64,000 nt of DNA, taken from contig NZ_LT607413.1 in NCBI RefSeq assembly GCF_900091495.1, forward strand, positions 7,509,501 through 7,573,500, given 5' to 3'. Below are positions 8,632 to 33,231 of this stretch, piece by piece; position 1 is the first letter of the stretch; every line of letters begins with the position of its first letter. The DNA is from Micromonospora echinospora (GTDB lineage: Bacteria > Actinomycetota > Actinomycetes > Mycobacteriales > Micromonosporaceae). The position numbers and the translations under genes were made by a program. The notes below the pieces were generated by a model that had not been told where the DNA came from, did no database searches, and saw nothing but the letters and a program-made list of their open reading frames with translations.

Positions 8632-8933
8632 CGCTGGGGTTCCTCCGGAAAGATCTCTCGGTCGCCGATGCGCGGATCCTCCCGCAGCTCGGCGAACTGG
8701 TCGTCGAACGCCTCGCCCCGGGCGAACGCCTCGTGGATCTCCTGCTCGCGTTCGGCCATCCCGATCCGGACGTCCTCCACGAAGCTACGCATCGACTCCA
8801 GCAGTCCGCCAGCGGATTCGGTCAGCGAACCGGCGATGCCCTGCGGCGTGTACGCGTGCGCGGTCCGGGTGGCCTTGCGGACCACCACCACGCCGACGGC
8901 GAGCCCGATGCCGAGCCAGAACAGACGCCTCAT
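8628..8933 (-). CDS. DUF6167-like small membrane protein
   Basis: A 101-residue protein with one N-terminal membrane segment (residues about 3-18, [15 protein letters not shown]) followed by a charged helical tail with many Glu and Arg. It resembles the DUF6167 proteins found directly before alaS in actinobacteria; that assignment rests on size, layout and position. Its stop overlaps the alaS start (ATGA), so the two are probably co-translated. Function unknown. Confidence 0.8.
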
Positions 8934-17662: not shown

Positions 17663-19504
17663 TCAGAACGCCTCCTCGGGGACGTCCATCAGGTCGAGGC
17701 ACGCGGCCTGGATGATCTTCCGGTCGGCGGTGAGCCGGGGCAGCACCTCCCGGGCGAAGAACCGGGCCACCGCCACCTTGCCGGTGTAGAAGGCCCGGTC
17801 GGCGGCGGAGAGGTCGGCCCGGTCCAGGGCCCCTGCGGCGACCTCGGCCCGGCGGAGCAGCAGCCAGCCGACGAGCAGGTCACCGAGGGCCAGCAGCAGC
17901 CGCCGGCTATGCAGCCCGACCAGGTAGAGCTGACGGGGTTCGCCGCCCTGGGCGGCGCCCAGCCACTCCAGCATGGTGCCGAGGCAGCCCTGCACGTCGG
18001 TGACCGCCCGGCCCAGCGCGATCCGCTCGGCGGCGAACGAGTCGTCGGCCTCGGCGCCGACGAACGCGCCGATCTCGCCGGCCAGGGCCATCAGCGCCAC
18101 CCCCTGGTCCTTGGCGATCTTGCGGAACACCAGGTCGAGGCTCTGGATCGCGGTGGTTCCCTCGTACAGGGTGTCGATCTTGGCGTCCCGGACGTACTGC
18201 TCCAGCGGGTAGTCGGTCAGGTAGCCGGAGCCGCCGAGGGTCTGCAACGACTCGTGGCCGAGCATCTCGTACGCCCGCTCCGAGCCGAACCCCTTGACCA
18301 GGGGCAGGAGCAGGTCGTTGACCCGGGCGGCCAGGTCGGCGTCCGGCCCGTGGACCATCCGGTCCTGCCAGCGGCCGGTGTAGACGAGCAGGGCGCGCAG
18401 TCCCTCGGCGTACGCCTTCTGGAGCATCAGCGACCGGCGTACGTCGGGGTGGGCGACGATCCGTACCCGGGGGGCGGTCTTGTCGGCCGCCCGGGTCAGG
18501 TCCGCGCCCTGCACCCGCTCCCGGGCGTACGCCAACGCGTTGCGGTAGCCGGTGGAGAGCGTGGCAATGGCCTTCGTGCCGACCATCGTCCGGGCGTACT
18601 CGATGATCCGGAACATCTGCCGGATGCCGTCGTGCCGCTCCCCCACCAGCCAGCCGACCGCCGGCACGCCGTGCTGGCCGAAGGTCAGCTCGCAGGTGTT
18701 GGAGACCTTCAGGCCCATCTTCTGCTCGACGCCGGTGGCGAAGACACCGTTGCGCGCGCCCAGCTCACCGGTGGCCGGGTCGAAGTGGTACTTCGGCACC
18801 ACGAAGAGGCTGAGGCCCTTGGTGCCCGGCCCGCCGACGCCCTCGACCCCCACCGGCCGGGCCAGCACGTAATGCACGATGTTCTCGGTGAGGTCGTGCT
18901 CGCCGGAGGTGATGAAGCGCTTGACGCCGTCGAGGTGCCACGAGCCGTCCGGCTGCGGCACCGCCCGGGTGCGGCCCGCGCCGACGTCCGAGCCGGCGTC
19001 CGCCTCGGTCAGCGCCATGGTGGAACCCCACTGGCGGTCCACGAAGATCCGGGCCCACCGCTTCTGCTCCGCCGTCCCCTCGTGCCAGAGCACGTTGGCC
19101 AGGGGCGGGCCGGAGGCGTAGATCCAGACCGCCGGGTTGGCGCCCATCACCAGCTCGCCGATCGCCCGCCAGAGCATCCGGGGCGCGGGCGTGCCACCCA
19201 ACTCCGGGGCCAGGTCGCCGAGCCGCCAGAACCCGGCGTCGAGGAACGCCCGGTACGCCTTGCCGAACGCCGGGGGCAGCGGCGCGGTGTGCGTGGCCGG
19301 GTCGAACACCGGCGGATGCCGGTCGCCCTCGGTGAACGCGTCCGCCAGCTCCTCGCGGGCGGAGCGGTCCACCTCGGCGAGGATCTGCCGGACGGTGTCG
19401 GCGTCCAGGTCGGGGTAGCCGCCGGGACCGAGGAACTCCTCGATCCCGAAGACCTCGAAGAGGTCGAACTCCAGGTCCCGCAGGTCGCTGCGGTAGTGGC
19501 CCAT
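17663..19504 (-). CDS. acyl-CoA dehydrogenase (long, FadE type)
   Basis: FAD-dependent alpha,beta-oxidation of an acyl-CoA. At 613 residues it is longer than the 380-residue classic forms, matching the extended subgroup with an extra C-terminal helical domain. Visible are [13 protein letters not shown] (FAD/substrate loop), [19 protein letters not shown], the helix [20 protein letters not shown], and the catalytic-base region [11 protein letters not shown]. Its 3' end overlaps the frame of the phosphopantetheinyl transferase, so the two are probably co-transcribed. It could supply unsaturated acyl chains or take part in ordinary fatty-acid breakdown. Confidence 0.9.
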
Positions 19505-19589: not shown

Positions 19590-21059
19590 TCAGCCGCCGT
19601 GGATCGCCGCCATGTCGACCTTGGCGCGGGTGCTGGGCAGCACGAAGGTGGCCAGCACGGCGACCGCGGTCAGGATCGCCGCCACCAGGAAGGCCGCGTG
19701 CAGGCCGTCGAGCAGCACGGACGGGTTCTGGGCGCCCTCCCCGATCCGGCCGGAGAGCCGTTCGTTGGCGACGGTGACCAGGACCGCGAGGCCGACCGCG
19801 CCACCCACCTGCTGGGCGGTGTTCATCAGGCCGGAGGCGATGCCGCTCTCCTCCCGGGCGACGCCGCTGACCGCCGCGACCACCAGGGGCACCAGGGCCA
19901 GGCCGAAGCCCGCGCCGGAGAGGATCAGGGTGGGGAGGAGTTCGCTGACGTACGAGCCGTCGACGGTGCTGCGCAGCAGCAGAAGCTGGCCGACGCCGAC
20001 CAGCGCCAGACCTACCATGATCAGGTTCCGGGTGCCCAGCTTCGGGGTGAGCTGCATGGCCGCCCCGGCGAAGACCGCCATGGTGAGGCCGAGTGGGGCC
20101 CAGGACAGGCCGGCCCGGATCGGCGACCAGCCGTTGATCACCTGCATGTAGAGGCTGAGGAAGAAGAAGGTGCCGTAGAGCGCCGAGGCGGCCAGCACGG
20201 TGAGGATGTTGGCCACCGCGATCTGCCGGTTGGCCAGGATGCCGAGGCGCAGCAGCGGCTCCGGAGCGCGCTTCTCCCACCACACGAAGATCGCGATCAG
20301 CACCACCGCGCCGGCCAGGCCACCGATGGTCAGCGGGTCGCTCCACGCCCGGTGCGAGGTGTTGAGCATGGTGTAGACGAGCAGCAGCAGACCACCGGTG
20401 ATGGTGGCCGCGCCGAAGCCGTCCAGCCGGCGCGGACCGGTCGCCGCGTCCAGGTCGACACCGCCCCGCAGGCCGGTCAGGGCGAGCGCGAGCAGCACCG
20501 CGCCGACCGGGACGTTGATGAAGAAGACCCAGCGCCAGCCGATGGTGTCGGTGATCAGACCGCCGAGGAGCACGCCGGTGGTGCCGGCGATGCCGGAGAG
20601 GCCACCCCAGACGCCGAGCGCCTTGCCCCGCTGGTCGGCGTTGGTGAAGGCGCTGACCAGGATGCTCAGCGCCGCCGGACTGAGCAGCGCCGCACCGAAG
20701 CCCTGCACGCCCCGGGCGACGATCAGCGCGGTGTCGGACTGGGCGAGCCCACCGGCCAGCGACGCGCCGACGAAGACGACCAGCCCGACGAGGAACATCC
20801 GCTGCCGGCCGAACAGGTCCGCGCCCCGGCCGCCGAGCAGCAGGAAGCCACCGAAGAGCAGCATGTACGCGTCGACCACCCAGGCCAGCGAGGAGGTGCT
20901 GAACTCCAGGTCGGTCCGGATCGACGGCAGGGCCAGGTTGACCACCGTCTCGTCGAAGATGACGAGCAGTTGGGCGCCGCAGGTGATGGCGAGCAGGAGC
21001 GCGACCCGCCCCCGGCTCAACGTCTGGTCCCGTTCGGGCACGGCGGCTTGCACCATCAC
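19590..21059 (-). CDS. DHA2-family (EmrB/QacA-like) drug exporter
   Basis: A 489-residue, about 14-span MFS antiporter. Diagnostic segments are [13 protein letters not shown] in helix 1 (DHA2 motif D1 with the membrane Asp), [20 protein letters not shown] (motif A) and the motif C glycine helix [21 protein letters not shown]. The first ~15 residues are cytoplasmic. It stands about 1.3 kb from the fatty-acyl gene cluster and could export its product or an intermediate; that link is inference from position. Single transcription unit with its own terminator. Confidence 0.88.
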
Positions 21060-21238: not shown

Positions 21239-21880
21239 TCAGTCACCGAAGGCGCGCTGCTGGCGGCGGCGCAGCGAGCCGGCCATGAGCTTGGCCACCG
21301 GGCGGGCCGGCACACCCGCCCGCTCGTCCGGTTCGGCCACCGAGTCCAGCCAGGGCGGCATGAAGCCGAGCGTCCACTTCGGCGCGGTCTTGAGCATGTT
21401 GCGCTCGAAGCGGCTCCACGCGGAGGCGTCCAGGGCCGGGGCCAGCCGGTCGGTCAACTCGTGCTCCTCGTCGGCGCAGTGCGCGGCGAGCGAGTCGCGC
21501 AGCCGCTGCACCGCCGCGCCGAACTCGGCCCAGGCGGAGGTGGGGGCGCGGTCGAGGGCGACCAGCCGCCCCCGGACGTCCTTAAGGTGGCCGAGCAGCT
21601 CGGCGTGTTCCTCGGTCATCAGGGTGAGCACGTCCTCGCCGGCCCCGCGTTCCCGCAGCATCGGCCAGAAGAACTCGTCCTCGCCCTCGTGGTGGTGCTC
21701 GATGATCTGGAGGATCCGGTCGGCGTAGTCGGTCAGGGCCGCCGCGCGCGCCGGATCGGGCGCGCGGGACAGGCCCGTGGCCGTAGCCGAGATACGACCC
21801 AGGTCACGCAACATCGCCCGGTGCGCGAGCCGCATCGTGAGGTGACCGGAGGGAAGTCCGACGGCTGGCTGACTGGACAT
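21239..21880 (-). CDS. hemerythrin-domain protein
   Basis: A 213-residue all-helical protein with HHE-type diiron ligands. LAHRAML carries an early His, IIEHHHEGEDEFFWPML supplies the HxxxE motif, EEHAELLGHL a further His/Glu pair, and CADEEHELTDRLAPAL the last His/Glu. Such proteins bind non-haem diiron and sense or bind oxygen or nitric oxide. The C-terminal ~70 residues (PKWTLGFMPPWLDSVAEP and a basic tail) form the extra region seen in actinobacterial versions. It lies next to the lipid cluster and may protect oxygen-dependent enzymes, but no direct link is visible. Confidence 0.85.
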   Translation of the reverse strand: MSSQPAVGLPSGHLTMRLAHRAMLRDLGRISATATGLSRAPDPARAAALTDYADRILQIIEHHHEGEDEFFWPMLRERGAGEDVLTLMTEEHAELLGHLKDVRGRLVALDRAPTSAWAEFGAAVQRLRDSLAAHCADEEHELTDRLAPALDASAWSRFERNMLKTAPKWTLGFMPPWLDSVAEPDERAGVPARPVAKLMAGSLRRRQQRAFGD

Positions 21881-22393: not shown

Positions 22394-23416
22394 ATGGACG
22401 GCAGAGAGCACCGCTGGTTCATCCTGACCGCCTCCGTGGCGCCGCTGATCGGCGTCATGGTGGCGATGGTCCTGCTCTGGAACAGGCTGTTCGGCTGGTC
22501 GGATCTCGTGGCCCTGGTGGTCATGTACACGATCTGCGCCTTCGGCATCTCCACCGGCTACCACCGGCTGCTGACGCACCGGGCGTTCCGGACCACCCGG
22601 CCGATCTACCTCGCCCTGGCCACGGCCGGGGCGATGGCCGGACAGGGCCCGCCGATCATCTGGGCCGCGCACCACCGGCGGCACCACCGGGTCGCCGACC
22701 GCGAGGGCGACCCGCACAGCCCGCACCTGGGCTTCGAGCCCGGCGTCAAGGGCATCCTCCGGGGGCTGTGGCACGCCCACCTGGGCTGGCTGTTCGACGT
22801 CGACCTGCGCTCGGAGCCGATGCGCTACTGCCCGGACCTGGTCCGCGACAAGGCCCTGCGCTGGATCAGCGAGAAGTTCGTGCTGGTCGTAACCGCCGGC
22901 ATCGTGCTGCCCGGCCTGATCGGGCTCGCCCTCACCGGCACGCTGACCGGCGCGCTGACCGGCGCGCTCTGGGGTGGTCTGGTCCGGCTGTTCCTGGTCA
23001 ACCACATGACCTACGCGGTCAACTCGGTCGGGCACTACTTCGGCCGGCGCCGGTTCGGCACCCTGGACCACTCCCGCAACGTGGCCTGGCTGGCCATCCC
23101 CTCGTTCGGCGAGGCGTGGCACAACAACCACCACGCCTTCCCCCGCTCGGCCCGGCACGGCATGAAGTGGTGGGAGGTGGACATCAGCGCCGTCTTCATC
23201 TGGTCGCTGGAGAAGGTCGGCCTGGCCACCCACGTGATCCGGATCGACCCGGAGCGACTGGCCATGCGCGAGGGCGGGGTGAGCCTGGTCGCCAACGTCA
23301 AGGCGGACCGGACCCCGGCCACCACGGCCGAGGAGCTGCTGACCGCACCGGCGGCCCCGCCGCTGTCCGAGCGTCGGTCCGCGGCCGACCTGGTCTCGGT
23401 CACCGACGTCGAATGA
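22394..23416 (+). CDS. membrane fatty-acyl desaturase (three-His-box type)
   Basis: An integral-membrane diiron desaturase, 340 residues. Histidine boxes are HRLLTH (57-62), HRRHH (94-98) and HNNHH (243-247), the delta-9 acyl-CoA/acyl-lipid pattern, with hydrophobic pairs before box 1 and between boxes 2 and 3. No fused cytochrome b5 or rubredoxin domain. ATG 22394 has AGGTAGG-type ribosome site; frames further upstream lack the family pattern. It opens a two-gene unit with the fatty acyl-AMP ligase 37 bp downstream, so it probably acts on that pathway's acyl chain, possibly while ACP-bound. Whether it makes an alkene or an alkyne cannot be told from sequence. Confidence 0.92.
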   Translation: MDGREHRWFILTASVAPLIGVMVAMVLLWNRLFGWSDLVALVVMYTICAFGISTGYHRLLTHRAFRTTRPIYLALATAGAMAGQGPPIIWAAHHRRHHRVADREGDPHSPHLGFEPGVKGILRGLWHAHLGWLFDVDLRSEPMRYCPDLVRDKALRWISEKFVLVVTAGIVLPGLIGLALTGTLTGALTGALWGGLVRLFLVNHMTYAVNSVGHYFGRRRFGTLDHSRNVAWLAIPSFGEAWHNNHHAFPRSARHGMKWWEVDISAVFIWSLEKVGLATHVIRIDPERLAMREGGVSLVANVKADRTPATTAEELLTAPAAPPLSERRSAADLVSVTDVE

Positions 23417-23453
23417 GGACACCGACCGCCGAGCCGACCCGGAGGGGGACGCC

Positions 23454-25079
23454 GTGCAGCTGTGGGAGCGACTGACCGGAACCGGGGGCCGGGGCCGGTT
23501 GCACGCCTGGGCCGGCAACGGATTCACCGCGACACCGTGGCCGGAGGTGGTCGCCGACGCCCGGGGCGCGGCGGCCACCCTCCGCCGCGCCGGGGTGCGG
23601 CCCGGCCGGCAGGTGGCCGCCATCCTGGACAATTCCCCGGAGGCGGTCCGTGGCCTGCTCGGGGTCTGGTTGGCCGGCGGGGCCGTCGCGTCGCTGCCGG
23701 TGCCCACTCGGGGCATGGACCGGCAGGAGTACGCCGGGCACCTGGAGACCCTGGTCGCCAACCTCGACGCGCCGGTGCTGCTGGCCGACGAGAAGCTGGC
23801 CCCGCTGCTGCCCGAGTCGTTGCACCGTCGACTGGCGGTGCGGTCCTGGCAGTCGCTGGCCGGTGACGGCCGGATCGACGAGACCCCGCCGGAGGCCGAC
23901 GGGCTGGCGTTCGTGCAGTACTCCTCGGGCAGCACCAGCGTCCCCAAGGGGTGCGCGCTGACCACCCGGGCCATCGGCCGGCAGCTGGAGATGATCCTGG
24001 CCATGGCCGGCGGGGTGCCCGGCGAGGAGACGGTCGCCTCCTGGCTGCCGCTCTCCCACGACATGGGCATGTTCGGCTGCCTGCTCTACGCCTGGGCGCA
24101 CGACTTCGGGCTGGTGCTGTCCACCCCGGAGCGGTTCATGATGTCGCCCCGGACCTGGTTCCGGGACATGGCCGAGTACGGCGCGACCATGACCGCCGGC
24201 ACCAGCACCGCGCTGCACCTGGCCGCCCGGGGGCAGGGCAGCGGCGCGCTGGCCGCCCCGCTGCGGCTGCGGGTCTGCGTGGTCGGGGCGGAGCGGGTGG
24301 AGTGGGAGGCGCTGCGGCGCACGGTGGCCGCGTTCGGTCCGCACGGGCTCCGGGAGGAGGCGCTGATGCCGGCGTACGGGCTGGCCGAGGCGACTCTGGC
24401 GGTCACGGCCTGCCCGCACGACGAGGCTCCGCGCTTCCTCGACGTCGACGGCAACCGGCTCGCCGACGGCGAGGTGGTGGTGTGCGCGGCGGACGACCCG
24501 GCGGCGACCCGCGTGGTCTCCACCGGCCGGCCGTGTGACGGGGTCGAGGTGGACGTCGCCGAACCGGGTCGCCTCTCCGAGATCCGCATCGCCTCGCCGA
24601 GCCTGGCCGGTGGCTACTTCGCCGACCCGGAGCGCACCGCGGCGCGGTTCGTCGACGGCCGGCTGCGCACCGGCGACCTGGGCTTCCTGCACGACGGGGA
24701 GCTGTACGTGGTGGGTCGCTCCGACGACCTGCTCCAGGTCGGCGGGCGCAACGTCTACGCGCGGGAGATCGAGAGCACGATCGACGGGCTGGAGACGGTC
24801 CGCAAGGGCTGCGCGGTGATCGTCGACGTCGCCGAGGACGGCCGGAGCGAGTTGGTGCTGCTCGTGGAGCTGAAGAGCCGCAGCAACGACTACCGGGCCT
24901 TCGCCGACGAGGCGGCGGCGATCGCGATGACCAAGGCCGGGGTGCCGCTGGCCGAGTGCGTCTTCCTGGAGAAGGGCACCCTGCCGAAGACGCCCAGCGG
25001 CAAGATCCAGCGGTTCCGGTGCCGGGCGCTGCTGGCGTCCGACGCGTGGCGTCCGCTGGCCCGGGTCGCCGTCCGCTGA
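23454..25079 (+). CDS. fatty acyl-AMP ligase (FAAL-type ANL enzyme)
   Basis: Adenylates a free fatty acid and, if a true FAAL, hands it to a carrier protein rather than CoA. The 541-residue protein has P-loop YSSGSTSVPKG (156-166), VVGAERVEWEALRRTVAAF followed by ALMPAYGLAEATLAV (FAAL-like A5 region), RTGDLGF (A7/A8) and C-terminal LPKTPSGKIQRFR with the catalytic Lys. FAAL over acyl-CoA ligase is favoured by the A5 region and by the ACP gene in the same locus, but the FAAL-specific insertion was not aligned. GTG 23454 start. Confidence 0.88.
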   Translation: MQLWERLTGTGGRGRLHAWAGNGFTATPWPEVVADARGAAATLRRAGVRPGRQVAAILDNSPEAVRGLLGVWLAGGAVASLPVPTRGMDRQEYAGHLETLVANLDAPVLLADEKLAPLLPESLHRRLAVRSWQSLAGDGRIDETPPEADGLAFVQYSSGSTSVPKGCALTTRAIGRQLEMILAMAGGVPGEETVASWLPLSHDMGMFGCLLYAWAHDFGLVLSTPERFMMSPRTWFRDMAEYGATMTAGTSTALHLAARGQGSGALAAPLRLRVCVVGAERVEWEALRRTVAAFGPHGLREEALMPAYGLAEATLAVTACPHDEAPRFLDVDGNRLADGEVVVCAADDPAATRVVSTGRPCDGVEVDVAEPGRLSEIRIASPSLAGGYFADPERTAARFVDGRLRTGDLGFLHDGELYVVGRSDDLLQVGGRNVYAREIESTIDGLETVRKGCAVIVDVAEDGRSELVLLVELKSRSNDYRAFADEAAAIAMTKAGVPLAECVFLEKGTLPKTPSGKIQRFRCRALLASDAWRPLARVAVR

Positions 25080-25097
25080 GGCCGGTGCCCGGAGACC

Positions 25098-25140
25098 GAC
25101 GAAGCCGGGGTGGGGATCGTCTCCCCACCCCGGCTTCGTC
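25098..25140. terminator. bidirectional terminator between FAAL and KAS III genes
   Basis: Arms GACGAAGCCGGGGTGGGGA (25098-25116) and TCCCCACCCCGGCTTCGTC (25122-25140) pair perfectly over 19 bp. It lies between the stops of convergent genes, 18 bp from each. Confidence 0.9.
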
Positions 25141-25158
25141 GTCGGAGCCGGCCGGCGG

Positions 25159-26169
25159 TCAGCCGCCGGCCCGCCAGCGGATGGCGGCGGCGCCGGCCAT
25201 GTCCCCGGCGTGCGCGAAGCCGGCGAGGACCAGCAGGTCGCCCGGGCCCACCCGACCGTCCCGGACGGCCTCGGTCAGCGTGATCGGCACGGCGGCGCCG
25301 AACAGGTTGCCGTACTCGTCGAAGGTGTCCAGGTGCCGCTCCGGCTTGAGCTGCAACGCCTCCCGCCAGTTACGCAGGAACATCCGGTTCGGCTGGTTGG
25401 TGACCAGCACGTCGATGTCCGGCGTACGGACACCGATCCGGTCGCAGAGCGCGGTGACCACCTCGGGGACGAGCTGGTTGCCCCGGCCGATGATCTTCGC
25501 GACCTTGGACTCGGTGAAGCTGACGTCCATCTCGCTCTGTCCGGGCTGCCAGTACTTCCGGTCGTCGTCGAAGGCCAGGCCGACGTCGGTGGCGTACTCG
25601 ACGTACTGGCGGATCTCCACGTCGATGATCGGGGACTCGTCCCCGATCCGCAGGTAGCCGACCCCGCAACCGTCGCCCGGCACCGGCGCGTGCGACTTGG
25701 TGCGGATGGTCGGCTGGGTGAAGACCTGGCCGGCGCTGTTCTGCACGTTGCACAGCAGCGCGGTCTTCGCCCCGCCGGACTGCATGATCTGCTTGGCGAG
25801 CTTCAGCATGTAGACGAAGGAGACGCAGCCGCCGTTGTGCACGTCGAGCACCCAGTCCGGGCGCTCGCCGAGCCGGTGGGCCACCTCCGCTCCGGCGCCG
25901 GTGAACGGCAGGTCGGGCAGGAGCACGTTGGTGATGAGCAGGTCCACCGGCCCGTCACCGCGCGCCTTCGCCCGGTCCAGCACCGGCCGGGCGGCCTTGA
26001 CGATCAGGTCGGCCGCGGTCTCGTCCGGCCCCATGTGCCGGCGGTACTTCGGCGACTTGAACATCACGCTGTCGTCGAGCGCGGCGTCCGCGCCGCGGTA
26101 GAAGTCGGTGCCGACCCGGTTCTCCGGCAGGGCGCTGTTGACCTCGACCAGGCTGACCGGGACGGTCAT
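25159..26169 (-). CDS. KAS III (FabH-like) condensing enzyme homologue with altered triad
   Basis: A 336-residue thiolase-fold protein of the 3-oxoacyl-ACP synthase III family. The acyl-accepting Cys is C115 in VHNGGCVSFVYML. The Asn of the triad is N288 in DEYGNLFGAAVP. The expected His motif (usually HQAN) reads TNQPN, with N258 in place of His. The closing GFAHAGDMAGAAAIRW loop is family-like. Without the His, classic decarboxylative condensation should be weak, so it may transfer acyl groups or condense with a non-malonyl partner. It overlaps the SRPBCC gene stop by ATGA and is the last gene of a three-gene operon. Confidence 0.85.
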   Translation of the reverse strand: MTVPVSLVEVNSALPENRVGTDFYRGADAALDDSVMFKSPKYRRHMGPDETAADLIVKAARPVLDRAKARGDGPVDLLITNVLLPDLPFTGAGAEVAHRLGERPDWVLDVHNGGCVSFVYMLKLAKQIMQSGGAKTALLCNVQNSAGQVFTQPTIRTKSHAPVPGDGCGVGYLRIGDESPIIDVEIRQYVEYATDVGLAFDDDRKYWQPGQSEMDVSFTESKVAKIIGRGNQLVPEVVTALCDRIGVRTPDIDVLVTNQPNRMFLRNWREALQLKPERHLDTFDEYGNLFGAAVPITLTEAVRDGRVGPGDLLVLAGFAHAGDMAGAAAIRWRAGG

Positions 26170-26828
26170 GCCGAGACTCCCTCACGCACCACGTGGCCGG
26201 TCACCGGGATGCCCCGGCTGTGCCGGTACTCCAGGATCGCCTTGAGGTTGTCCAGCTCGGCGCGGTGCCCGGCGTAGAACAGCGGCCACATGTCCCCCAC
26301 CCAGACCCGGTTCGGGTCGGCGACCAGGTGCTTGTTCGGGTTGTCGTCGTAGTACGGGTGGCGGCAGTTGGTCCAGACCAGCACCGAGCCGGGCTTCTTC
26401 AGCACCAGCTCGGCGGGGATGATCCGGTTGATGTAGATCATCCACAGTTCATCGCCCTGGTCCCAGGCGCAGTGGTAGTCGACGGTCAGCGACTCCCGGT
26501 TGGCGACCACCTTGGCGTAGATGCGGGTGTCGTCGGCCAGGGTGTCCCAGCCGACGTGCAGCCCGTCGGTGGCGCCGGGAACCGGCTCGAAGTGCCGGGT
26601 GCTGTACGTCCACTCGTCAAGGTTGCGCAGGTCCGAGAGGTAGTCGAAGACGTCCTCCGGCGGGCAGTCGATGTAGTCCTGCACGGTGCAGAACTGCCCG
26701 TACACCGCGTCGTGCGGGTAGACCGCGTGGGTCATCTCCGCGGCCTTGGCCAGAGCCGCCTCCCGCGGGGTGGTCTCGCAGCGCAGCAGGTTCGGGATGT
26801 CAGCCAACGGCGACGACGGGCTGGTCAT
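26166..26828 (-). CDS. SRPBCC/START-fold protein (polyketide cyclase-like)
   Basis: A 220-residue protein. Core pattern FCTVQDYIDCPPEDVFDYLSD, then NLDEWTYSTRHFEPVP, is the start of an SRPBCC ligand-binding fold (Bet v 1-like helix-grip), found in cyclases, aromatases and lipid-binding proteins. It is larger than minimal cyclases and has an extra C-terminal segment (NKHLVADPNRVWVGDMWPLFYAG). ATG 26828 lies 29 bp inside the ThDP gene's 3' end, with AAGGAGC upstream, and its stop overlaps the KAS III start. It presumably binds an acyl or beta-keto intermediate; no catalytic residues can be assigned. Confidence 0.82.
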   Translation of the reverse strand: MTSPSSPLADIPNLLRCETTPREAALAKAAEMTHAVYPHDAVYGQFCTVQDYIDCPPEDVFDYLSDLRNLDEWTYSTRHFEPVPGATDGLHVGWDTLADDTRIYAKVVANRESLTVDYHCAWDQGDELWMIYINRIIPAELVLKKPGSVLVWTNCRHPYYDDNPNKHLVADPNRVWVGDMWPLFYAGHRAELDNLKAILEYRHSRGIPVTGHVVREGVSA

Positions 26829-28521
26829 GGGGTGCTCCTTGGGGACTGACGGTGTCGAGATGGTTGAGGAACGGTACGAACGGTGGGATCTCCCGCGGAC
26901 TCACGTCGACGCAGACCACGGCCGGCGACCGGGTGGACCCGTGCGCGACCAGGGCCTGCCGCAGCTCGTCCGGCGTACGGGCGTGGGTGACCGGCAGGGT
27001 CGGGAACATGCCCCGGATCCCGCCGGCCAGGTCGGTCGGTCGGAACTCGTTGAACGTGTACGCGTCGTCGTAGTAGAGCTGCTCGCGGGTGACGCACATG
27101 CCGTGCGCGTTGTTGTTGACGACCACGAACGTCACCGGCAGGTCGTGTTCGACCGCGGTGTGGATCTCCATGCCGTGCATGAGGAACCCGCCGTCGCCGA
27201 TCACCACGTAACTGCGCGCGCCGGTGCCGAGGGCGGCCCCGATGCCCGCGCCGAGGCTGTGCCCCATGCCGCCCATGCCCAGCGCGACGACGAACCGCCC
27301 GTCCCGTGGGGTGGCCACCCAGTGGATGACGCCGGCGGCGGCGTTGCCCGCGTCGGCGATCACGGTCGCGCCCTCCGGCACGGCCGCGCCGATCGCCTCG
27401 ACCGCGTCGCGCAGCCGCATGCCCTCCCCCTCGAACGGCGGCACGGTGAGGAAGCGCAGGTCGGCGCGGGCGGGGGACGGTGGAGCCGGCCGGGCGGCGC
27501 GCAGCCGCGCGGTGACCGCCCGCAGCTCGGCGCGCAGGTCGCCGTCCACGTGCAGCGTGTCCGGGTCGGAAAAGGCCGGCTCGGCCCCGAAGCAGACCAG
27601 CTCGGTGCCGGCGAGCAGGGCGTCCAGCCCGCCCCGGGCCATCACCGGCAGCCGGGTGCCGACCAGCACGCAGAGCCGGGCCCGGCGCAGCGCGTCGGTG
27701 ACGCTCGGATGCCCGATCACGCCGGCCACCCCGACGAAGCGGGGGTCGTGGTTGTCGAAGACGTCCTTGCCGTCCGGCACGACGGCGACCCGGGCGTCCA
27801 GCGCGGCGACGAACTCGGCCAGCTCGGCGCGGGCGCCCCGGCGGGCCACCTCGTCTCCGGCGATCACCAACACCGGCTCGCCGGCCAGCTCCGCCAGCCG
27901 GTCGGCGGCGCGCTCGCGGGCCGCCGAGGCGGCCACCGGCGTGCGCCGGGCGGTCAGCAGTTCGTCGATCGGGGGCGGGTCGGCGAGGACGGCCTGCTGC
28001 ACGTCCTTCGGCAGCAGCAGCACCGCCGGCCCGCCGGGCAGCGCCCGGGTGGCGGTGAGCGCGTCGGCCAGCGCCGCGGCGAGGTCCGCCGGGTCGTCGA
28101 CCCGTGCGCAGTACCGGCTGATCGTCGAGAACAGCCGGTACGCGTCGAACGAGCCGGCCAGACCACTGGTGTCCTGGAAGGCCCCCCGACCCTCCAGTGA
28201 CCGGGGCGGCTGCCCCACCACGGCCAGCAGCGGCACCCGGGAGGCGTACGCCTCGGCCACCCCGGGGACCAGGTTCATCGCCCCCGCGCCGGAGGTGGAG
28301 ACGGCCACCGCGAGCCGGCCGGTGGTGCGGGCGTACCCGTCGGCCATCGCGGCGGCCGAGAACTCGTGCTTCGCCACCACCGCGCGGACCGCCCCGTCGC
28401 AATGGTGCGCCGCGTCGTACAGATCCTCAATGTTGGCGCCACCGACACCGAATATGTGACGCACCCCGACTTGGTGCAACGATCTGATCAGATAATCGAC
28501 TACCCGGTACGGTCTGTCCAT
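26800..28521 (-). CDS. thiamine-diphosphate enzyme, acetolactate-synthase-like
   Basis: A 573-residue three-domain ThDP enzyme. The activating Glu is E53 in VAKHEFSAAAMADGYAR; the cofactor motif runs from GDGG at 442-445 to NNN at 469-471, with the usual spacing. The Pyr domain, central domain and PP domain are all complete. ATG 28521 is chosen: a longer frame to 28566 lacks family similarity. It could decarboxylate a 2-oxo acid and add the resulting carbanion to an aldehyde, a thioester or another 2-oxo acid. It heads the overlapping operon ThDP-SRPBCC-KAS III and diverges from the ACP gene. Real housekeeping acetolactate synthase is unlikely given no small subunit. Confidence 0.9.
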   Translation of the reverse strand: MDRPYRVVDYLIRSLHQVGVRHIFGVGGANIEDLYDAAHHCDGAVRAVVAKHEFSAAAMADGYARTTGRLAVAVSTSGAGAMNLVPGVAEAYASRVPLLAVVGQPPRSLEGRGAFQDTSGLAGSFDAYRLFSTISRYCARVDDPADLAAALADALTATRALPGGPAVLLLPKDVQQAVLADPPPIDELLTARRTPVAASAARERAADRLAELAGEPVLVIAGDEVARRGARAELAEFVAALDARVAVVPDGKDVFDNHDPRFVGVAGVIGHPSVTDALRRARLCVLVGTRLPVMARGGLDALLAGTELVCFGAEPAFSDPDTLHVDGDLRAELRAVTARLRAARPAPPSPARADLRFLTVPPFEGEGMRLRDAVEAIGAAVPEGATVIADAGNAAAGVIHWVATPRDGRFVVALGMGGMGHSLGAGIGAALGTGARSYVVIGDGGFLMHGMEIHTAVEHDLPVTFVVVNNNAHGMCVTREQLYYDDAYTFNEFRPTDLAGGIRGMFPTLPVTHARTPDELRQALVAHGSTRSPAVVCVDVSPREIPPFVPFLNHLDTVSPQGAPHDQPVVAVG

Positions 28522-28758
28522 AATGTATGGCCCCCGCGCGGTACCTCGAAGCCTATGTCCCCCCAAGGGTGCCCATCATGCACGGGCAATCGTCGGCACA
28601 CAAGGCAGCAATGGAGGGTCGCCCGATCTCGTCCACTGTGGCATGATCCAGCGGACCCGACCATCCGAGGGCCGGAGATACGCATTCTCGACGCGGCGGT
28701 CAGTGACACCCCTCGCTGTCGAAAGCGCAATCACACCACGTGCACGAGGAGTTACGCA
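28522..28758. other. divergent control region between the two tailoring operons
   Basis: 237 bp, more AT-rich than the genes, separating the ThDP operon from the ACP operon. It carries one plausible minus-strand promoter, a TGCCC/GGGCA inverted repeat around 28570-28590, and CCACGTGCACG near 28736. No plus-strand promoter was convincing. No regulator gene is encoded next to it, so control must come from elsewhere. Confidence 0.5.
28575..28603 (-). promoter_or_regulatory. candidate promoter of the ThDP-SRPBCC-KAS III operon
   Basis: On the minus strand TTGTGT (28598-28603) and CATGAT (28575-28580) are 17 bp apart, followed by a leader of about 50 bases with GGGGG before the ATG at 28521. The match to consensus is partial. 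Confidence 0.35.
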
Positions 28759-29007
28759 GTGATTACTGTTGAACAGGTCTGCGAAATGGTGCAGAAGAAA
28801 CTGCGTGGAAAGAACGCCGACGAGACCACGCTCGGCGCGCAGACGGCCTTCGACGACCTGGGGTTGTCCAGCCTCCAGGTGGCCGACATCGTCTACGGCA
28901 TCGAGGACCAGCTCGACATCGAGTTCGACCCGTCCCGCGCGGCGGACGTGAAGACCATCGGTGACCTGGTCGACCTGGCCAACTCCACGGCCCAGCTCCG
29001 GGCGTAG
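28759..29007 (+). CDS. acyl carrier protein
   Basis: An 82-residue ACP. The phosphopantetheine Ser is S38 in FDDLGLSSLQVADIVYGIEDQ, where the usual DSL reads SSL. Helix pattern and the C-terminal TIGDLVDLANS match carrier proteins. GTG start at 28759 with GAGGAG at 28746-28751. It opens the plus-strand tailoring operon and sits 2 bp before the methyltransferase. As the only carrier in the locus it is the probable partner of the fatty acyl-AMP ligase and the KAS III homologue. Activation needs a phosphopantetheinyl transferase such as the one at 16965-17639. Confidence 0.92.
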   Translation: MITVEQVCEMVQKKLRGKNADETTLGAQTAFDDLGLSSLQVADIVYGIEDQLDIEFDPSRAADVKTIGDLVDLANSTAQLRA

Positions 29008-29009
29008 CC

Positions 29010-29927
29010 GTGTCCGTCCACGCACCGCTGGCCGACGCCCCGGCGGCCGGGGCCGACACCGCCACCGGCCGCTACGACGGCGCGTCCATGGACGCCATCC
29101 AGCAGCACTACGACCTCTCGAACGACTTCTACGCGCTCTGGCTCGGTCAGTCGATGGCCTACAGCTGCGCCATGTGGTCGGGCCCGGAGGACGACCTCGA
29201 CGCAGCCCAGCTCCGCAAGTTCGACTACCTCATCGAGGGGGCGCGGGCGACCGGCGCGCGCCGGGTGCTCGACGTCGGGTGCGGCTGGGGCGGTCTGATG
29301 GAGCGCCTGGTGGGCGCACACCGGGTGGAGCAGGTCGTCGGGCTGACGCTCAGTGACTCGCAGGCCGAGTGGGTCCGGGCACGCGCGTCGGACGGGATCG
29401 AGGTGCACGTCCAGAACTGGCTGGACCACACCCCGACCGAGCCGTACGACGCGATCATCTCGATCGGCGCGTTCGAGCACTTCGCCCGGGAGGGACTCAC
29501 CCGGACGGCCCGCGTCGCCGCGTACCGCGAGTTCTTCACCCGCGCCCGGGGCTGGCTGCGCCCGGGTGGGCGGATCGCCATCCAGACCAACATCAAGGGC
29601 AACAACGTCCGGATGGACCGGCAGACCGTCGCCGACCTGCTCTTCATCATCGAGCGGATCTTCACCGAGTCGGAGATCCCGGCGCTGTCCGAGGTCCTCC
29701 AGGCCAGTGAACGGATCTTCGACGTGGTGTCGGTCCGCAACGACCCGGACCACTACGCGCGGACCTGCGCGCAGTGGCTGGCCGGCCTGAAGCGCAACCG
29801 GGAACGGGCCCTGGAACTGGTGGGCGAGGAGCAGGTCGCCGAGTACGAGCGGTACCTCTCCGCCACCGTCGGACACTTCGAACGTCGTCACCTCGGGCTG
29901 GCCCGACTGGTCCTCGAAGCGGTCTGA
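29010..29927 (+). CDS. SAM-dependent methyltransferase, cyclopropane-fatty-acid-synthase family
   Basis: A 305-residue class I methyltransferase. It has the CFA/mycolic-methylase signatures HYDLSNDFYALWLG (33-46) and YSCAMW (51-56), the SAM glycine loop VLDVGCGWGG (86-95) and the SIGAFEHFARE segment (active-site Glu region). Family members methylate double bonds, or transfer methyl to N, O or C in natural-product pathways. GTG 29010 follows the ACP stop by 2 bp. With an acyl desaturase in the locus, methylation or cyclopropanation of an ACP-bound alkene is one option; methylation of a head group is another. Confidence 0.9.
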   Translation: MSVHAPLADAPAAGADTATGRYDGASMDAIQQHYDLSNDFYALWLGQSMAYSCAMWSGPEDDLDAAQLRKFDYLIEGARATGARRVLDVGCGWGGLMERLVGAHRVEQVVGLTLSDSQAEWVRARASDGIEVHVQNWLDHTPTEPYDAIISIGAFEHFAREGLTRTARVAAYREFFTRARGWLRPGGRIAIQTNIKGNNVRMDRQTVADLLFIIERIFTESEIPALSEVLQASERIFDVVSVRNDPDHYARTCAQWLAGLKRNRERALELVGEEQVAEYERYLSATVGHFERRHLGLARLVLEAV

Positions 29928-29964
29928 GGCGTCGTCGGCGCGACGGGTCAGCGATTGGAGTGCT

Positions 29965-31284
29965 GTGCCGAACTATCGACATGAGGTCTACTGGCAGACC
30001 ACCGAGGCCGCCGAACCACAGGACGCCCTGACCGGCGACGTCGACTGCGACGTCGCCGTCGTCGGTGCCGGGTTCACCGGCATGTGGACCGCGTACTCAC
30101 TGAAGAAGGCCCGCCCGGAGCTCTCCGTGCACCTGCTCGACGCGGGACTTGCCGGGGGCGCGGCCTCCGGCACCGCCGACGGTTTCGTCACCCCCACCCT
30201 CGGCAAGGACCTGGACCAGCTCATCCGGATCTACGGGGCGGAGGCGGCCGGCAAGGCGTCGGCGATCGTCGGCCGGTCCATCCTGGAGATCGGTCGGTTC
30301 TGCCGCCGGGAGAAGGTCGACGCCGAGTACGAGGCGAACGACTACCTGATGGTGGCGCTCAACGACGGGCAGCTCGCCCGCCTGGAGCACGACCGGCAGC
30401 TCGCCCTCAAGCTGGGCAGCGACACCAAGATCATGGACGCGGCGGAGGCCCGCGCCTACGTCGACTCCCCCGAGATCAAGGGGGCGGTCCGGGTCGGCGG
30501 GGCGCTGGTCAACCCGTACAAGCTGGCGCGGGGCCTGGCCCGGACGCTGCGCGCGGCGGGCGTGGCCATCCACGAGCGTACGCCGGTCCAGCGGGTCGAG
30601 CCGGCGGCGACCGCCGGTGCGCCGCACACGGTGGTGACCGCCGCCGGGCGGGTCCGGGCGCCGCAGGTGGTGCTGGCGACCAGCGCGTCGCAGTACACCT
30701 TCGCCGGGTTCCAGCGGCGGGTGCTGCCGATGTGGAGCTACGTGCTGATCAGCGAACCGCTCACCGAGGAGCAGCTCGGCCGGGTGCACTGGCCCGGCCG
30801 GGAGGGCCTCGTCGAGGCCAAGACCTTCCTGCACTGCGGCCGGTTCACCGCCGACAACCGGGTCATGTGGGCCGGCGGGCGGGCGTACTACTACCCGTGC
30901 AGCCCGTTCGACCGGGCACACATGCAGAACCCGGCGATCTACCGGGAGCTGACCGCGTCGTTCGCCCGGTTCTTCCCGGCCTGGCGGGACGTGCGGTTCG
31001 AGTTCGCCTACGGCGGGGTCATCGACATCACCCGCGACATGATGCCGCACTTCGGCACGCTCCGGCCCGGCCTGCACTACGGGTACGGCTACTGCGGCAA
31101 CGGCATCGCCGCGACCCACACCGGTGGGCGGATCCTGCGCGACCTGGTCCTCGGCGAGAAGACCGACTACTCGACGCTGGCCCTGGTCGACGCGCCCCGG
31201 CCGACCTTCCCGCCGGAGCCGATCAGCTTCGCCGGTTACCAGGTGCTCTCCCGGGTCTACGAGTGGAAGGACCGGCGCGGATGA
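29965..31284 (+). CDS. FAD-dependent oxidoreductase (D-amino-acid/glycine oxidase fold)
   Basis: A 439-residue DAO-superfamily flavoenzyme. The dinucleotide motif VVGAGFTGMWTAYSL is at 32-46; the C-terminal YGYCGNGIAATHTGGRILRDL is the second FAD-contact segment. Family members oxidise amines, amino acids or N-methyl groups, with GGVID-type sequence in the C-terminal part as here (YGGVIDITRDMMPHFG). GTG 29965 start; the 3' end overlaps the next gene (ATGA). In this operon it may oxidise an amino-acid-derived head group, or dehydrogenate an intermediate. It is not the GlcD-type flavoprotein used in tuberculostearate formation. Confidence 0.85.
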   Translation: MPNYRHEVYWQTTEAAEPQDALTGDVDCDVAVVGAGFTGMWTAYSLKKARPELSVHLLDAGLAGGAASGTADGFVTPTLGKDLDQLIRIYGAEAAGKASAIVGRSILEIGRFCRREKVDAEYEANDYLMVALNDGQLARLEHDRQLALKLGSDTKIMDAAEARAYVDSPEIKGAVRVGGALVNPYKLARGLARTLRAAGVAIHERTPVQRVEPAATAGAPHTVVTAAGRVRAPQVVLATSASQYTFAGFQRRVLPMWSYVLISEPLTEEQLGRVHWPGREGLVEAKTFLHCGRFTADNRVMWAGGRAYYYPCSPFDRAHMQNPAIYRELTASFARFFPAWRDVRFEFAYGGVIDITRDMMPHFGTLRPGLHYGYGYCGNGIAATHTGGRILRDLVLGEKTDYSTLALVDAPRPTFPPEPISFAGYQVLSRVYEWKDRRG

Positions 31285-32285
31285 GCCGGCGCAAGACGAT
31301 CGTCCTCACCGGCGCGTCCGGTGTGGTCGGGCAATCCATCATCCGCGAGCTGGGCGGTCGGCCGGTCCTGTGCCTGGTCAACTCCGGCACCGTGGCCGGT
31401 CCCGGGGTGGAGATGCTGCGGGTCGACCTGTCCCGACCGCGCCTCGGCCTCGACGACGACGGCTACGCCGACCTGGTCGCCCGCACCGGCGCGATCATCC
31501 ACTCCGGCGGACTGACCGACTGGGGGCAGCCGGCCGAGCGGTACCAGCGAACCAACGTGGACGGCACCCGCGAGGTGATCGAGCTGGCGCGTCGGGCCGA
31601 CGCCCCGATCTACCACCAGAGCACCTCGTTCGTGCACGCGCTGGCCGACTCCGCCCCGTTGCCGCTGCGCGAGACGAACGTGGTCACCGCGTACGTCCGC
31701 TCGAAGCTCGCCGCCGAGGAGCTGCTGCGCACCTCCGGCGTGCCGTACGTCATCTTCCGGCCGACGAACCTGATCGGCGACGCGGCGACCGGGCTGACCT
31801 CGCGCGGGCAGATCGTGCAGCTCATGTCGGACTGGATCTGCCGGGGCCGGGCGAAGGTGTTCCCGGCGCACCCGGGCAACCTGGTGGACATCGTCCCGCA
31901 GGACACCCTCTCCCGGGCCACGATCGCCGCGATGGACGCGGGCGACCACGGCCGGGAGTACTGGGTGACCTACGGCAAGGAGGCGATGACCGTCGACGAG
32001 GCGGTGGAGATCTGCGTCGCGCACGCCGCACGCCGGGGCCGGACCATCACCCCGCCCCGGGTGGTGCACCCCGACGAGCTGACCCCGGCGGAGCTGGACG
32101 CCCTGCCGCCGATGTCCCGCCGGTACGTGGAGGTCCTCGCCGACGTCAGCGAGGTGACCGCGTGCGCGGGCGGGGCCCTTCCGTCCTCCCTGGACGAGCT
32201 GCGCAGCCGGTACGGCCTGCCGCACGTCTCCGACCGGGACGCCTACCGTCGAAGCCTCGAGTACTGGAGCGAGCAGGGTGCCTGA
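31281..32285 (+). CDS. extended SDR / thioester-reductase-like NAD(P) enzyme
   Basis: A 334-residue extended short-chain dehydrogenase. The nucleotide loop VLTGASGVVGQSI is at 8-20 and the catalytic pair lies in AYVRSKLAAEELL. GGLTDWGQPAERYQRTNVDGT resembles the carrier-protein thioester-reductase domains that end NRPS/PKS lines (male-sterility type). If so, it would release an ACP-bound acyl chain as aldehyde or alcohol. Epimerase/dehydratase activity is the alternative. ATG 31281 overlaps the FAD gene stop by ATGA, and the next SDR starts 8 bp before its end, so the operon is tightly coupled. Confidence 0.82.
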   Translation: MSRRKTIVLTGASGVVGQSIIRELGGRPVLCLVNSGTVAGPGVEMLRVDLSRPRLGLDDDGYADLVARTGAIIHSGGLTDWGQPAERYQRTNVDGTREVIELARRADAPIYHQSTSFVHALADSAPLPLRETNVVTAYVRSKLAAEELLRTSGVPYVIFRPTNLIGDAATGLTSRGQIVQLMSDWICRGRAKVFPAHPGNLVDIVPQDTLSRATIAAMDAGDHGREYWVTYGKEAMTVDEAVEICVAHAARRGRTITPPRVVHPDELTPAELDALPPMSRRYVEVLADVSEVTACAGGALPSSLDELRSRYGLPHVSDRDAYRRSLEYWSEQGA

Positions 32286-33231
32286 AGCAACCGAGCAGAC
32301 GACCGGCGACGGCCGGTGGGAACCGCCGGCCCTGGCCGGCAGCGTCGCGGTGGTCACCGGCGGCAGCCGGGGGGTGGGCCGGGGCGTCGCCCTGGCCCTC
32401 GGCGACGCCGGGGCGACGGTCTACGTCACCGGGCGCAGCACCCGGACCGCCGGGAGCACCGAGGGGCTGCCCGGCACGGTCGACGACACCGCCGACGAGG
32501 TGACCAAGCGGGGCGGGCAGGGCATCGCGGTGCGCTGCGACCACCACGACGACGCGCAGGTCGCCGCGCTGTTCGAGCGGATCGCCACCGAGCAGGACGG
32601 CCGGCTCGACCTGCTGGTCAACAACGCCTGGAGCGGCTACGAGCGTTCCGACGAGGCCCGCTTCGACGCCCCGTTCTGGCAGCAGCCGATGTGGCGGTAC
32701 GACGCGTACGCCGCCTCGGTGCGGGCGCAGTTCACCGCCAGCCGGCACGCGGTGGGGCTGATGCTCCCCCGGGACGCCGGCCTGCTGGTCACCATCAGCT
32801 ACACCGACGGGGACACCTACCTCGGGCAGGCGGCGTACGACATGTTCAAGGCCGCCTCCGACCGGCTCAGCCGGGCGATGGCCGGTGACCTGCGCAAGAC
32901 GAAGATCACGTCGGTCGGACTGCACCCCGGGTTCGTCCGGACCGAGCGGGTCGAGGCGGCCTGGTCGGCGCTGGGCAGCGGCCCGGCGGCGGTGGTCCAC
33001 TCCGCCGAGTACGTCGGCCGGGCGATCGCCCACCTGCTGGCCGACCCGTCGGTGCGCCAGGAATCCGGGCAGGTCCTCGCCTGCGGCGACCTCGCCGAGC
33101 GGTACGGCTTCTCCGACGTCGACGGTCGTCGCCCGCCGGCGTTCCGGCTGGAGGGGATGATGAGCCTGGCCACCCGGATGGAACGGCTGAACAAGGTCAT
33201 CGCCGCCCAGAAGCGATCCGCCGAGGGCTGA
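32278..33231 (+). CDS. classical short-chain dehydrogenase/reductase
   Basis: A 317-residue classical SDR. The Rossmann loop VVTGGSRGVGRGVAL is at 25-39, the active-site region is LVTISYTDGDTYLGQAAYDMFK (catalytic Tyr and Lys in YDMFK), and LLVNNAW replaces the common NNAG. Long N- and C-terminal extensions flank the fold. GTG 32278 start overlaps the preceding gene by 8 bp. It probably reduces a keto group (or oxidises an alcohol) of the pathway product. Last gene of the operon; a strong terminator follows. Confidence 0.88.
   Translation: MPEATEQTTGDGRWEPPALAGSVAVVTGGSRGVGRGVALALGDAGATVYVTGRSTRTAGSTEGLPGTVDDTADEVTKRGGQGIAVRCDHHDDAQVAALFERIATEQDGRLDLLVNNAWSGYERSDEARFDAPFWQQPMWRYDAYAASVRAQFTASRHAVGLMLPRDAGLLVTISYTDGDTYLGQAAYDMFKAASDRLSRAMAGDLRKTKITSVGLHPGFVRTERVEAAWSALGSGPAAVVHSAEYVGRAIAHLLADPSVRQESGQVLACGDLAERYGFSDVDGRRPPAFRLEGMMSLATRMERLNKVIAAQKRSAEG

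What the first reader, a model, noticed from the sequence alone, without database searches (positions are those of the whole stretch)
22394..33231. Ten-gene fatty-acyl pathway without PKS or NRPS modules
Seen: a membrane desaturase, a fatty acyl-AMP ligase and a free ACP, joined by a ThDP enzyme, an SRPBCC protein, a KAS III variant, a CFA-type methyltransferase, a DAO-type flavoenzyme, an extended SDR and a classical SDR, in three units with gene overlaps. Known: FAAL+ACP pairs load fatty acids in alkyne, lipopeptide and polyketide pathways, normally followed by PKS or NRPS modules. Inferred: a free-standing, ACP-based assembly of a modified lipid, possibly an acyloin, amino-ketone or methyl-branched/cyclopropyl product. 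I do not recognise a described cluster with this set.
Basis: partly seen in the sequence, partly recalled or inferred. Interest (0 to 1): 0.85.

Follow-up and report, generated by a model that had tools for sequence, protein, structure and literature searches.

The report
Lipid-loading carbazole alkaloid gene cluster
The ten genes combine the known bacterial toolkit for building carbazole alkaloids from tryptophan with a second, uncharacterised gene set that activates and remodels a fatty acid, so the likely product is a carbazole with a modified lipid tail rather than a plain lipid.

Summary
In detail: ten intact genes lie at 22394-33231 in three units, with the stated families. The interpretation needs changing. 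The minus-strand genes are the carbazole-forming trio CqsB1-CqsB2-CqsB3: the SRPBCC protein matches carbazole synthase CqsB2 (PDB 6ipv, E 1e-46) and keeps its five proposed catalytic positions, one as Glu-to-Asp. The other seven genes (DES, FAAL, ACP, CMAS, DAO, TR, SDR) form an acyl module that also occurs without the trio, beside type I PKS, FabH or beta-oxidation-like genes. Both modules together occur in 5 of 160 Micromonospora and 6 of 392 Streptomyces genomes searched; the paired loci are not one clade for either module. Four upstream genes (hemerythrin-like, MFS, ACAD-like, PPTase) belong too. Most likely product: a 1-alkyl-2-methyl-carbazole catechol or quinone whose tail is a FAAL-loaded, desaturated, C-methylated acyl chain. 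The trio assignment is well supported; use of the FAAL chain is inferred; DAO, TR, SDR and hemerythrin roles are open. My paper searches found no such combination.

The parts
16965..17639 (-). Sfp-like PPTase (probable ACP activation)
   Evidence: Pfam ACPS and AASDHPPT_N, both below cut-off; conserved in 5 of 5 Micromonospora clusters; a different PPTase sits in 5 of 6 Streptomyces A+B loci
17663..19504 (-). acyl-CoA-dehydrogenase-like protein (ACAD), possible alpha,beta-desaturase
   Evidence: Pfam; 5 of 5 Micromonospora clusters (in G049 as two pieces), 3 of 6 Streptomyces A+B loci, and the module-B-only locus G623
19590..21056 (-). DHA2-type MFS exporter
   Evidence: TIGR00711 over its cut-off; 5 of 5 Micromonospora and 5 of 6 Streptomyces A+B loci
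21239..21835 (-). hemerythrin-like (HHE) protein, possible di-iron partner of the carbazole trio
   Evidence: PF01814; in 10 of 10 A+B clusters with enough sequence, and beside the trio in three loci without a working module B (R. opacus; Nocardia; L058)
22394..23416 (+). membrane fatty acid desaturase (DES), module B
   Evidence: PF00487; nearest PDB acyl-CoA desaturase 4ymk; His boxes HRLLTH, HHRRHH, HNNHH visible in the sequence
23454..25079 (+). fatty acyl-AMP ligase (FAAL), module B
   Evidence: PF00501; top PDB matches include chains named fatty-acid--AMP ligase or fatty acyl-adenylate ligase (FadD23 159.3 bits, 3pbk 158.3), the best chain named a CoA ligase is 74.6 bits
25159..26169 (-). 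CqsB1/NzsJ-type KAS III variant, module A; Cys115 and Asn288 kept, the His of FabH's HQAN is Asn (NQPN)
   Evidence: assigned to CqsB1 by its place beside the CqsB2-type gene, no CqsB1 sequence was compared
26166..26828 (-). CqsB2/NzsI-type carbazole synthase (SRPBCC), module A
   Evidence: PDB 6ipv CqsB2 E 1e-46, profile 2.5e-67; five proposed catalytic positions kept, one Glu-to-Asp; predicted fold best matches 6ipv
26800..28521 (-). [quoted passage not shown]
   Evidence: TPP_enzyme N/M/C; best PDB BbmA and CsmA; [quoted passage not shown] no CqsB3 sequence was compared
28759..29007 (+). free-standing ACP, module B
   Evidence: PF00550
29010..29927 (+). CMAS/CFA-family C-methyltransferase, module B
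   Evidence: PF02353; nearest PDB chains UmaA, cyclopropane synthases 1 and 2, MmaA4
29965..31284 (+). DAO-family flavoenzyme, module B
   Evidence: PF01266; TIGR03329 243 bits, far below its cut-off of 632.8; weak PDB similarity to glycine oxidase
31281..32285 (+). extended SDR of thioester-reductase type (TR), module B
   Evidence: PF07993, TIGR01746 below cut-off; profile best PDB MxaA 4u7w, matched over positions 4-216 of 336; YxxxK kept
32278..33231 (+). classical SDR, module B
   Evidence: PF00106

Best explanation
A carbazole-alkaloid cluster with its own acyl-supply module. [quoted passage not shown] Step 2: FAAL adenylates a fatty acid and loads it on the free ACP (activated by the PPTase); the desaturase, the ACAD-like enzyme and the CMAS-type methyltransferase modify the chain on ACP. 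Step 3: the KAS III variant decarboxylatively condenses the indole beta-keto acid with this acyl-ACP. Step 4: the SRPBCC carbazole synthase closes ring A, giving a 1-alkyl-2-methyl-carbazole-3,4-diol/quinone with a modified lipid tail, exported by the MFS protein. The families, and for step 4 the catalytic residues, are shown by sequence; the chemistry of steps 1, 3 and 4 is taken from the cqs/nzs pathways; use of the FAAL-ACP chain as acyl donor is inferred; the tail structure and the roles of DAO, TR, SDR and hemerythrin are open.
For: SRPBCC is of the CqsB2 family with five proposed catalytic positions kept. ThDP nearest to BbmA and CsmA. ThDP and SRPBCC genes lie in the fetched flanks of 73 of 80 KAS III loci, 54 of the 73 with an aminotransferase; trpB-like genes lie near the trio on a Nocardia and a Tsukamurella plasmid, which fits a tryptophan-derived substrate. 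PMC7466098: order of steps CqsB7-B3-B1-B2; CqsB1/B2 accept 3-hydroxymyristyl-CoA, and carbazoquinocin enzymes likely accept plain acyl-ACP. The module A + module B pairing is found in two genera, 11 genomes, and the paired loci are not one clade for either module. The methyltransferase is nearest to mycolic acid methyltransferases.
Against: No aminotransferase among the 20 proteins scanned, although 6 of 6 Streptomyces A+B loci have one. Module B also occurs without the trio, so it cannot be only a carbazole tail maker. A thioester reductase, if active on this ACP, would compete with the KAS III for the acyl group. CqsB1/B2 are reported to accept only beta-hydroxyacyl donors, and only ACAD hints at a route to one here. 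No CqsB1 or CqsB3 sequence was at hand for comparison. The trees are unrooted, so the pairing may have one origin.
Confidence: 0.66

Rival explanations
1. Two-piece product: the trio makes a carbazole with a short acyl group (3-hydroxybutyryl type), while the FAAL module makes a separate modified fatty aldehyde or alcohol, released by TR/SDR and attached to the carbazole later.
For: TR and SDR are present in 17 of 17 module B loci tabulated (10 of these rows were found with a TR search, so TR there is by construction); the S. harbinensis locus also carries a classical KAS III, the kind of enzyme that makes the short acyl chain in nzs; module B occurs without the trio.
Against: Only one free ACP and no classical KAS III were found in the window cluster; no obvious enzyme for joining an aldehyde to a carbazole. 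KAS III B, a relative of the trio's KAS III, accompanies module B in four loci without the trio (L050, L086, G603, G841b), which fits direct use of the acyl-ACP.
Confidence: 0.2
2. The trio here has drifted to another alpha-keto acid and makes an acyloin-derived lipid without an indole.
For: No aminotransferase found in the window cluster; the related ScyA-type enzymes couple other keto acids (PMC9822442 passage; NCBIfam TPP_ScyA_rel matches at 146 bits against a cut-off of 1000).
Against: Carbazole synthase catalytic positions are kept and the SRPBCC gene has dN/dS 0.13-0.16.
Confidence: 0.09
3. One reading: one free-standing ACP pathway to a modified lipid, no aromatic core.
For: All families are present as described; module B alone may be just that (G623).
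Against: The trio is the described carbazole machinery.
Confidence: 0.05

Closest known systems
Carquinostatin (cqs) and neocarazostatin (nzs) carbazole clusters, Streptomyces
   Same: KAS III variant, SRPBCC carbazole synthase and ThDP enzyme, plus a free ACP (PMC7466098)
   Different: No prenyltransferase, P450 or aminotransferase among the 20 proteins scanned; instead FAAL, desaturase, CMAS methyltransferase, DAO, TR, SDR
Lipocarbazoles, carbazoquinocins, carazostatin (1-alkyl-2-methyl carbazoles)
   Same: Predicted product class: 1-alkyl-2-methyl carbazole (PMC11350554 passages)
   Different: My searches found no gene cluster for lipocarbazoles; a FAAL-loaded, C-methylated tail is not described in what I read
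FAAL-desaturase-ACP triads (JamABC type and polyyne clusters; recalled, a polyyne paper seen in a search listing only)
   Same: FAAL, membrane desaturase and free ACP as a unit
   Different: Adds CMAS, DAO, TR and SDR and sits with a carbazole trio rather than PKS/NRPS
Mycolic acid methyltransferases (UmaA, MmaA4, cyclopropane synthases 1 and 2)
   Same: Nearest solved relatives of the methyltransferase
   Different: Not in a mycolate context; substrate unknown

Membership tests
Bacterial carbazole (cqs/nzs-type) clusters | SRPBCC carbazole synthase with Glu105, Tyr144, Tyr172, His206, Glu209 | tested here: met
   Map to Asp95, Tyr132, Tyr160, His188, Glu191; all five invariant in the 20-row alignment; Glu105 is conservatively replaced by Asp
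Bacterial carbazole (cqs/nzs-type) clusters | KAS III variant, SRPBCC and ThDP genes adjacent | tested here: met
   Overlapping minus-strand genes 25159-28521
Bacterial carbazole (cqs/nzs-type) clusters | ThDP enzyme uses indole-3-pyruvate and pyruvate | not testable with these tools
   Nearest solved relatives BbmA/CsmA only
Bacterial carbazole (cqs/nzs-type) clusters | Aminotransferase (CqsB7 type) for indole-3-pyruvate in the cluster | tested here: not met
   None in the 20 proteins scanned at 14122-38147; present in 6 of 6 Streptomyces A+B loci. It could be supplied in trans
Bacterial carbazole (cqs/nzs-type) clusters | Produces a carbazole | not testable with these tools
   No chemistry available
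FAAL | Closer to fatty acyl-AMP ligases than to acyl-CoA ligases | tested here: met
   FadD23 and 3pbk (named AMP/adenylate ligases) 159.3 and 158.3 bits; the best chain named a CoA ligase, oxalate--CoA ligase, 74.6
FAAL | FAAL-specific insertion motif | not tested
   Alignment not inspected
Thioester reductase | NADP-binding Rossmann fold with YxxxK and a C-terminal carrier-binding part | tested here: inconclusive
   Rossmann part and YxxxK met; the last third is unmatched to MxaA, and TIGR01746 is below its cut-off

The most novel reading that the evidence does not exclude
DES-FAAL-ACP-CMAS-DAO-TR-SDR is an undescribed portable acyl-remodelling cassette that has been recruited more than once by unrelated core builders (carbazole trio, type I PKS, FabH). 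With the carbazole trio it makes a new class of carbazoles with a cyclopropane or methyl-branched lipid tail. A hemerythrin-like protein that recurs beside the trio even without the cassette is an unrecognised carbazole-pathway oxidase.
Probability: 0.3. Interest if true: 0.72.

Novelty: new variant of a known kind. Interest (0 to 1): 0.55.

Why it matters
It turns an unexplained lipid-looking cluster into a testable alkaloid pathway. It suggests that the carbazole machinery can be paired with a FAAL-based route that activates free fatty acids, a possible handle for making carbazoles with chosen tails. It defines a seven-gene acyl cassette found beside several different core builders, and it points to a hemerythrin-like protein as a candidate missing redox partner. 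Bacterial carbazoles of this kind are reported as potential antioxidants (PMC7466098), so a lipid-anchored variant would be of practical interest.

Tried and rejected
DAO as an L-tryptophan oxidase replacing the aminotransferase: tempting, because an L-amino acid oxidase can feed NzsH in vitro (PMC9822442 passages), but DAO sits in loci without ThDP/SRPBCC and coexists with an aminotransferase in the Streptomyces A+B loci, so I do not favour it.

DAO as a cluster marker: the genus search at E 1e-60 hits 112 of 160 genomes. Only five genomes carry the cluster type (four at 737-776 bits; G049 split in two pieces). Fifteen more genomes have a relative at 505-532 bits; I looked at three of them (G025, G144, G085) and saw no module B. 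A phylum search (396 genomes) gave no further cluster-type DAO outside the genus: the next matches were at 414 bits or less, and their 4-kb loci showed only DAO among the window's genes.

The plasmid collection gave the trio in five actinobacterial records by KAS III match; I opened three. Paper searches found no FAAL-carbazole cluster; subscription papers and MIBiG are not held.

Limits of the survey: the Streptomyces count rests on one TR profile that was built from rows including S. pacificus, S. harbinensis and JJ66, so G902, G888 and G745 match by construction, and a trio with a partial module B lacking TR would be missed. The genome-contig scan kept 80 of 405 relatives. The hemerythrin profile was built from proteins that include L058 and R. 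opacus, so those two hits are by construction; their independent evidence is tblastn and annotation.

Trees: the KAS III tree used 24 of the 80 genome-contig loci at their match plus L050 and L086. The module A tree has 29 rows; L012, L067 and L063 were dropped because not all three proteins were called, and G745 (ThDP not called whole) and G049 (broken KAS III) were left out. The module B tree has 16 rows; G049 was left out. Both trees are unrooted, so one ancestral pairing with later losses is not excluded. L058 fits such a loss: it keeps a diverged ACP and a desaturase fragment.
Full report
What is there. The window lies in a Micromonospora-type chromosome (G000, 7.78 Mb in one contig; genus inferred from the names of the nearest proteins). 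They form three units: DES-FAAL (+), KAS III-SRPBCC-ThDP (-), and ACP-CMAS-DAO-TR-SDR (+). Starts called in relatives place the ThDP start at 28521.

The minus-strand unit is the carbazole trio. The SRPBCC protein finds one relevant solved relative, the carbazole synthase CqsB2 of Streptomyces exfoliatus (6ipv/6ipw; E 1e-46 for the single protein; 2.5e-67 for a 20-row profile; the other hits are weak partial matches to designed proteins). The residues proposed for CqsB2 catalysis in the review PMC7466098 (Glu105, Tyr144, Tyr172, His206, Glu209) map to Asp95, Tyr132, Tyr160, His188 and Glu191, and all five are invariant in the 20-row alignment. A predicted model (mean pLDDT 85.2) matches 6ipv best, E 1.8e-19 against 2.1e-6 for the next chain; the overall rmsd is poor, 15.2 over 204 alignment columns, TM 0.69. 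The ThDP enzyme is nearest to BbmA and CsmA; [quoted passage not shown] The KAS III variant keeps Cys115 and Asn288, but the His of FabH's HQAN is Asn (NQPN) in all 30 rows; that Cys-His-Asn is the FabH triad is recalled. No CqsB1 or CqsB3 sequence was at hand, so those two assignments rest on family and neighbourhood.

Known chemistry. According to PMC7466098 (outline, parts 1-2 of 5 of the text, sections 3.3 and 4, the legends and passages seen), CqsB7 makes indole-3-pyruvate, CqsB3 joins it to pyruvate, CqsB1 condenses the product with (R)-3-hydroxybutyryl-ACP, and CqsB2 closes ring A. CqsB1/B2 accept only beta-hydroxyacyl donors but of different length, including 3-hydroxymyristyl-CoA; carbazoquinocin-type enzymes probably accept plain acyl-ACP. 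So long acyl donors are possible for this machinery.

Distribution of the trio. One scan of genome contigs with the KAS III profile gave 405 relatives, of which the best 80 were kept. In 73 of these 80 both ThDP and SRPBCC lie in the fetched flanks, in 54 of the 73 with an aminotransferase, and in 69 of the 73 without the DAO set. FAAL is seen within the fetched flanks of three of the 80 loci (L020, L056, L086), all DAO-set loci. On a Nocardia and a Tsukamurella plasmid the trio lies near trpB-like genes.

Module B. DES-FAAL-ACP-CMAS-DAO-TR-SDR recurs as a set. Six loci are A+B (G902, G888, G745, G897, G841a, G659). Four are B only: G603 and G841b with KAS III B and type I PKS genes (the PKS of G603 by likeness to its near twin L050 and by eye), G619 with FabH, G623 with ACAD, enoyl-CoA hydratase and thioesterase. 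Actinophytocola (L086) and S. huiliensis (L050) also have module B genes with KAS III B and no ThDP/SRPBCC match; L086 showed no ACP and only the end of DES, and L050's fetched stretch showed no DES or FAAL. In Micromonospora 5 of 160 genomes carry A+B; in G013, G071 and G128 the ten genes are 81.6-96.8% identical to the window, and in G049 several genes have broken frames.

Were the modules paired once? In the module A tree the window's group stands with trio-only loci (G123, G056, L009, L011, L021), apart from the Streptomyces A+B loci; holding all A+B rows together is rejected (log-likelihood 318 lower, p-AU 5e-95). The module B tree likewise rejects one A+B clade (86 lower, p-AU 1e-120). 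The trees are unrooted: repeated pairing remains possible, and so does one pairing with two losses of B (module A tree) and a loss of A (module B tree). Either way the two modules keep being found together, which I take as evidence that they act on one product.

Wider cluster. The MFS exporter, ACAD-like protein, PPTase and hemerythrin-like protein upstream are conserved in all five Micromonospora clusters. The hemerythrin-like gene is in 10 of 10 A+B clusters with enough sequence (G659's contig ends too early; in G745 it was found after extending). It also lies beside the trio without a working module B in R. opacus (annotation; 28% match), Nocardia (49%) and L058 (52%). A profile search of the genes called in 86 fetched loci found it in only those two of them, L058 and R. 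opacus, and not in the other 84 (Nocardia was fetched later). Of these 84, four are A+B loci with short flanks (L010, L020, L056, L078), three of which do have it in longer stretches. So it is rare beside ordinary trios and regular in A+B clusters, a candidate pathway enzyme. Its conserved His/Glu pattern fits a di-iron site (sequence; the motif is recalled).

Mechanism and gaps. FAAL's best matches are AMP ligases, DES keeps three His boxes (sequence) and resembles acyl-CoA desaturases, and CMAS is nearest to mycolic acid methyltransferases, so a desaturated and C-methylated acyl-ACP is plausible. That this chain is the KAS III donor is inference. TR resembles the MxaA thioester reductase over its first two thirds and could compete with the KAS III; this is the weakest point and the basis of the two-piece rival. 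DAO, SDR and hemerythrin roles are open. No aminotransferase was found in the window cluster, unlike the Streptomyces A+B loci. dN/dS is 0.12-0.42 for the ten genes in three comparisons, and 0.37-0.44 for the PPTase.

Prior work. Searches returned the carbazole review, the chlocarbazomycin paper (PMC10100901, passages) and the NzsH paper (PMC9822442, passages); in what I saw of them no FAAL-carbazole cluster is described. Conclusion: a new variant of a known kind.

Noticed in passing
G000:C1:1679673-1680671 (L143, L144): A second, orphan KAS III variant (69% identical to the cluster copy) near DNA-repair-type genes (Ku/LigD, recognised by eye). Copies in the same gene order occur in all 5 cluster-bearing Micromonospora genomes; the 4 other genomes with any match (of 155) have trio-type copies instead.
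   Followed up: partly
L164 (G123) and L165 (G056): Trio without module B next to what look by eye like several glycosyltransferases and a P450; possibly a glycosylated carbazole.
   Followed up: no
L018 and L061: KAS III B next to type I PKS genes (domains scanned in L018, by eye in L061) with FAD-monooxygenase and AfsA-like genes; L018 also has an amine oxidase, a DES and an ACAD homologue.
   Followed up: no
L058: Trio with hemerythrin and an aminotransferase-DUF6875 fusion, plus a desaturase fragment and a diverged ACP: looks like a locus that lost module B.
   Followed up: partly
L197, L198: Carbazole trio on Tsukamurella and Nocardia plasmids near trpB-like genes; the Tsukamurella one also near a styrene/indole monooxygenase gene. 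Tsukamurella is the genus of the lipocarbazole producer (reference list of PMC7466098).
   Followed up: partly
L139, L140, L141 (G025, G144, G085): A related DAO (about 46% identical) in NRPS-like loci (by eye) in Micromonospora, with CMAS-like genes in two of the three; 15 genomes have this class.
   Followed up: no
L192 (G603), 7351-8652: Isocitrate lyase family gene inside the module B plus KAS III B locus.
   Followed up: no
G841: One genome holds two module B loci: one with the carbazole trio (G841a) and one with KAS III B and a type I PKS gene (G841b).
   Followed up: no
window 10001-12000: GC content 82%, well above the rest of the window.
   Followed up: no
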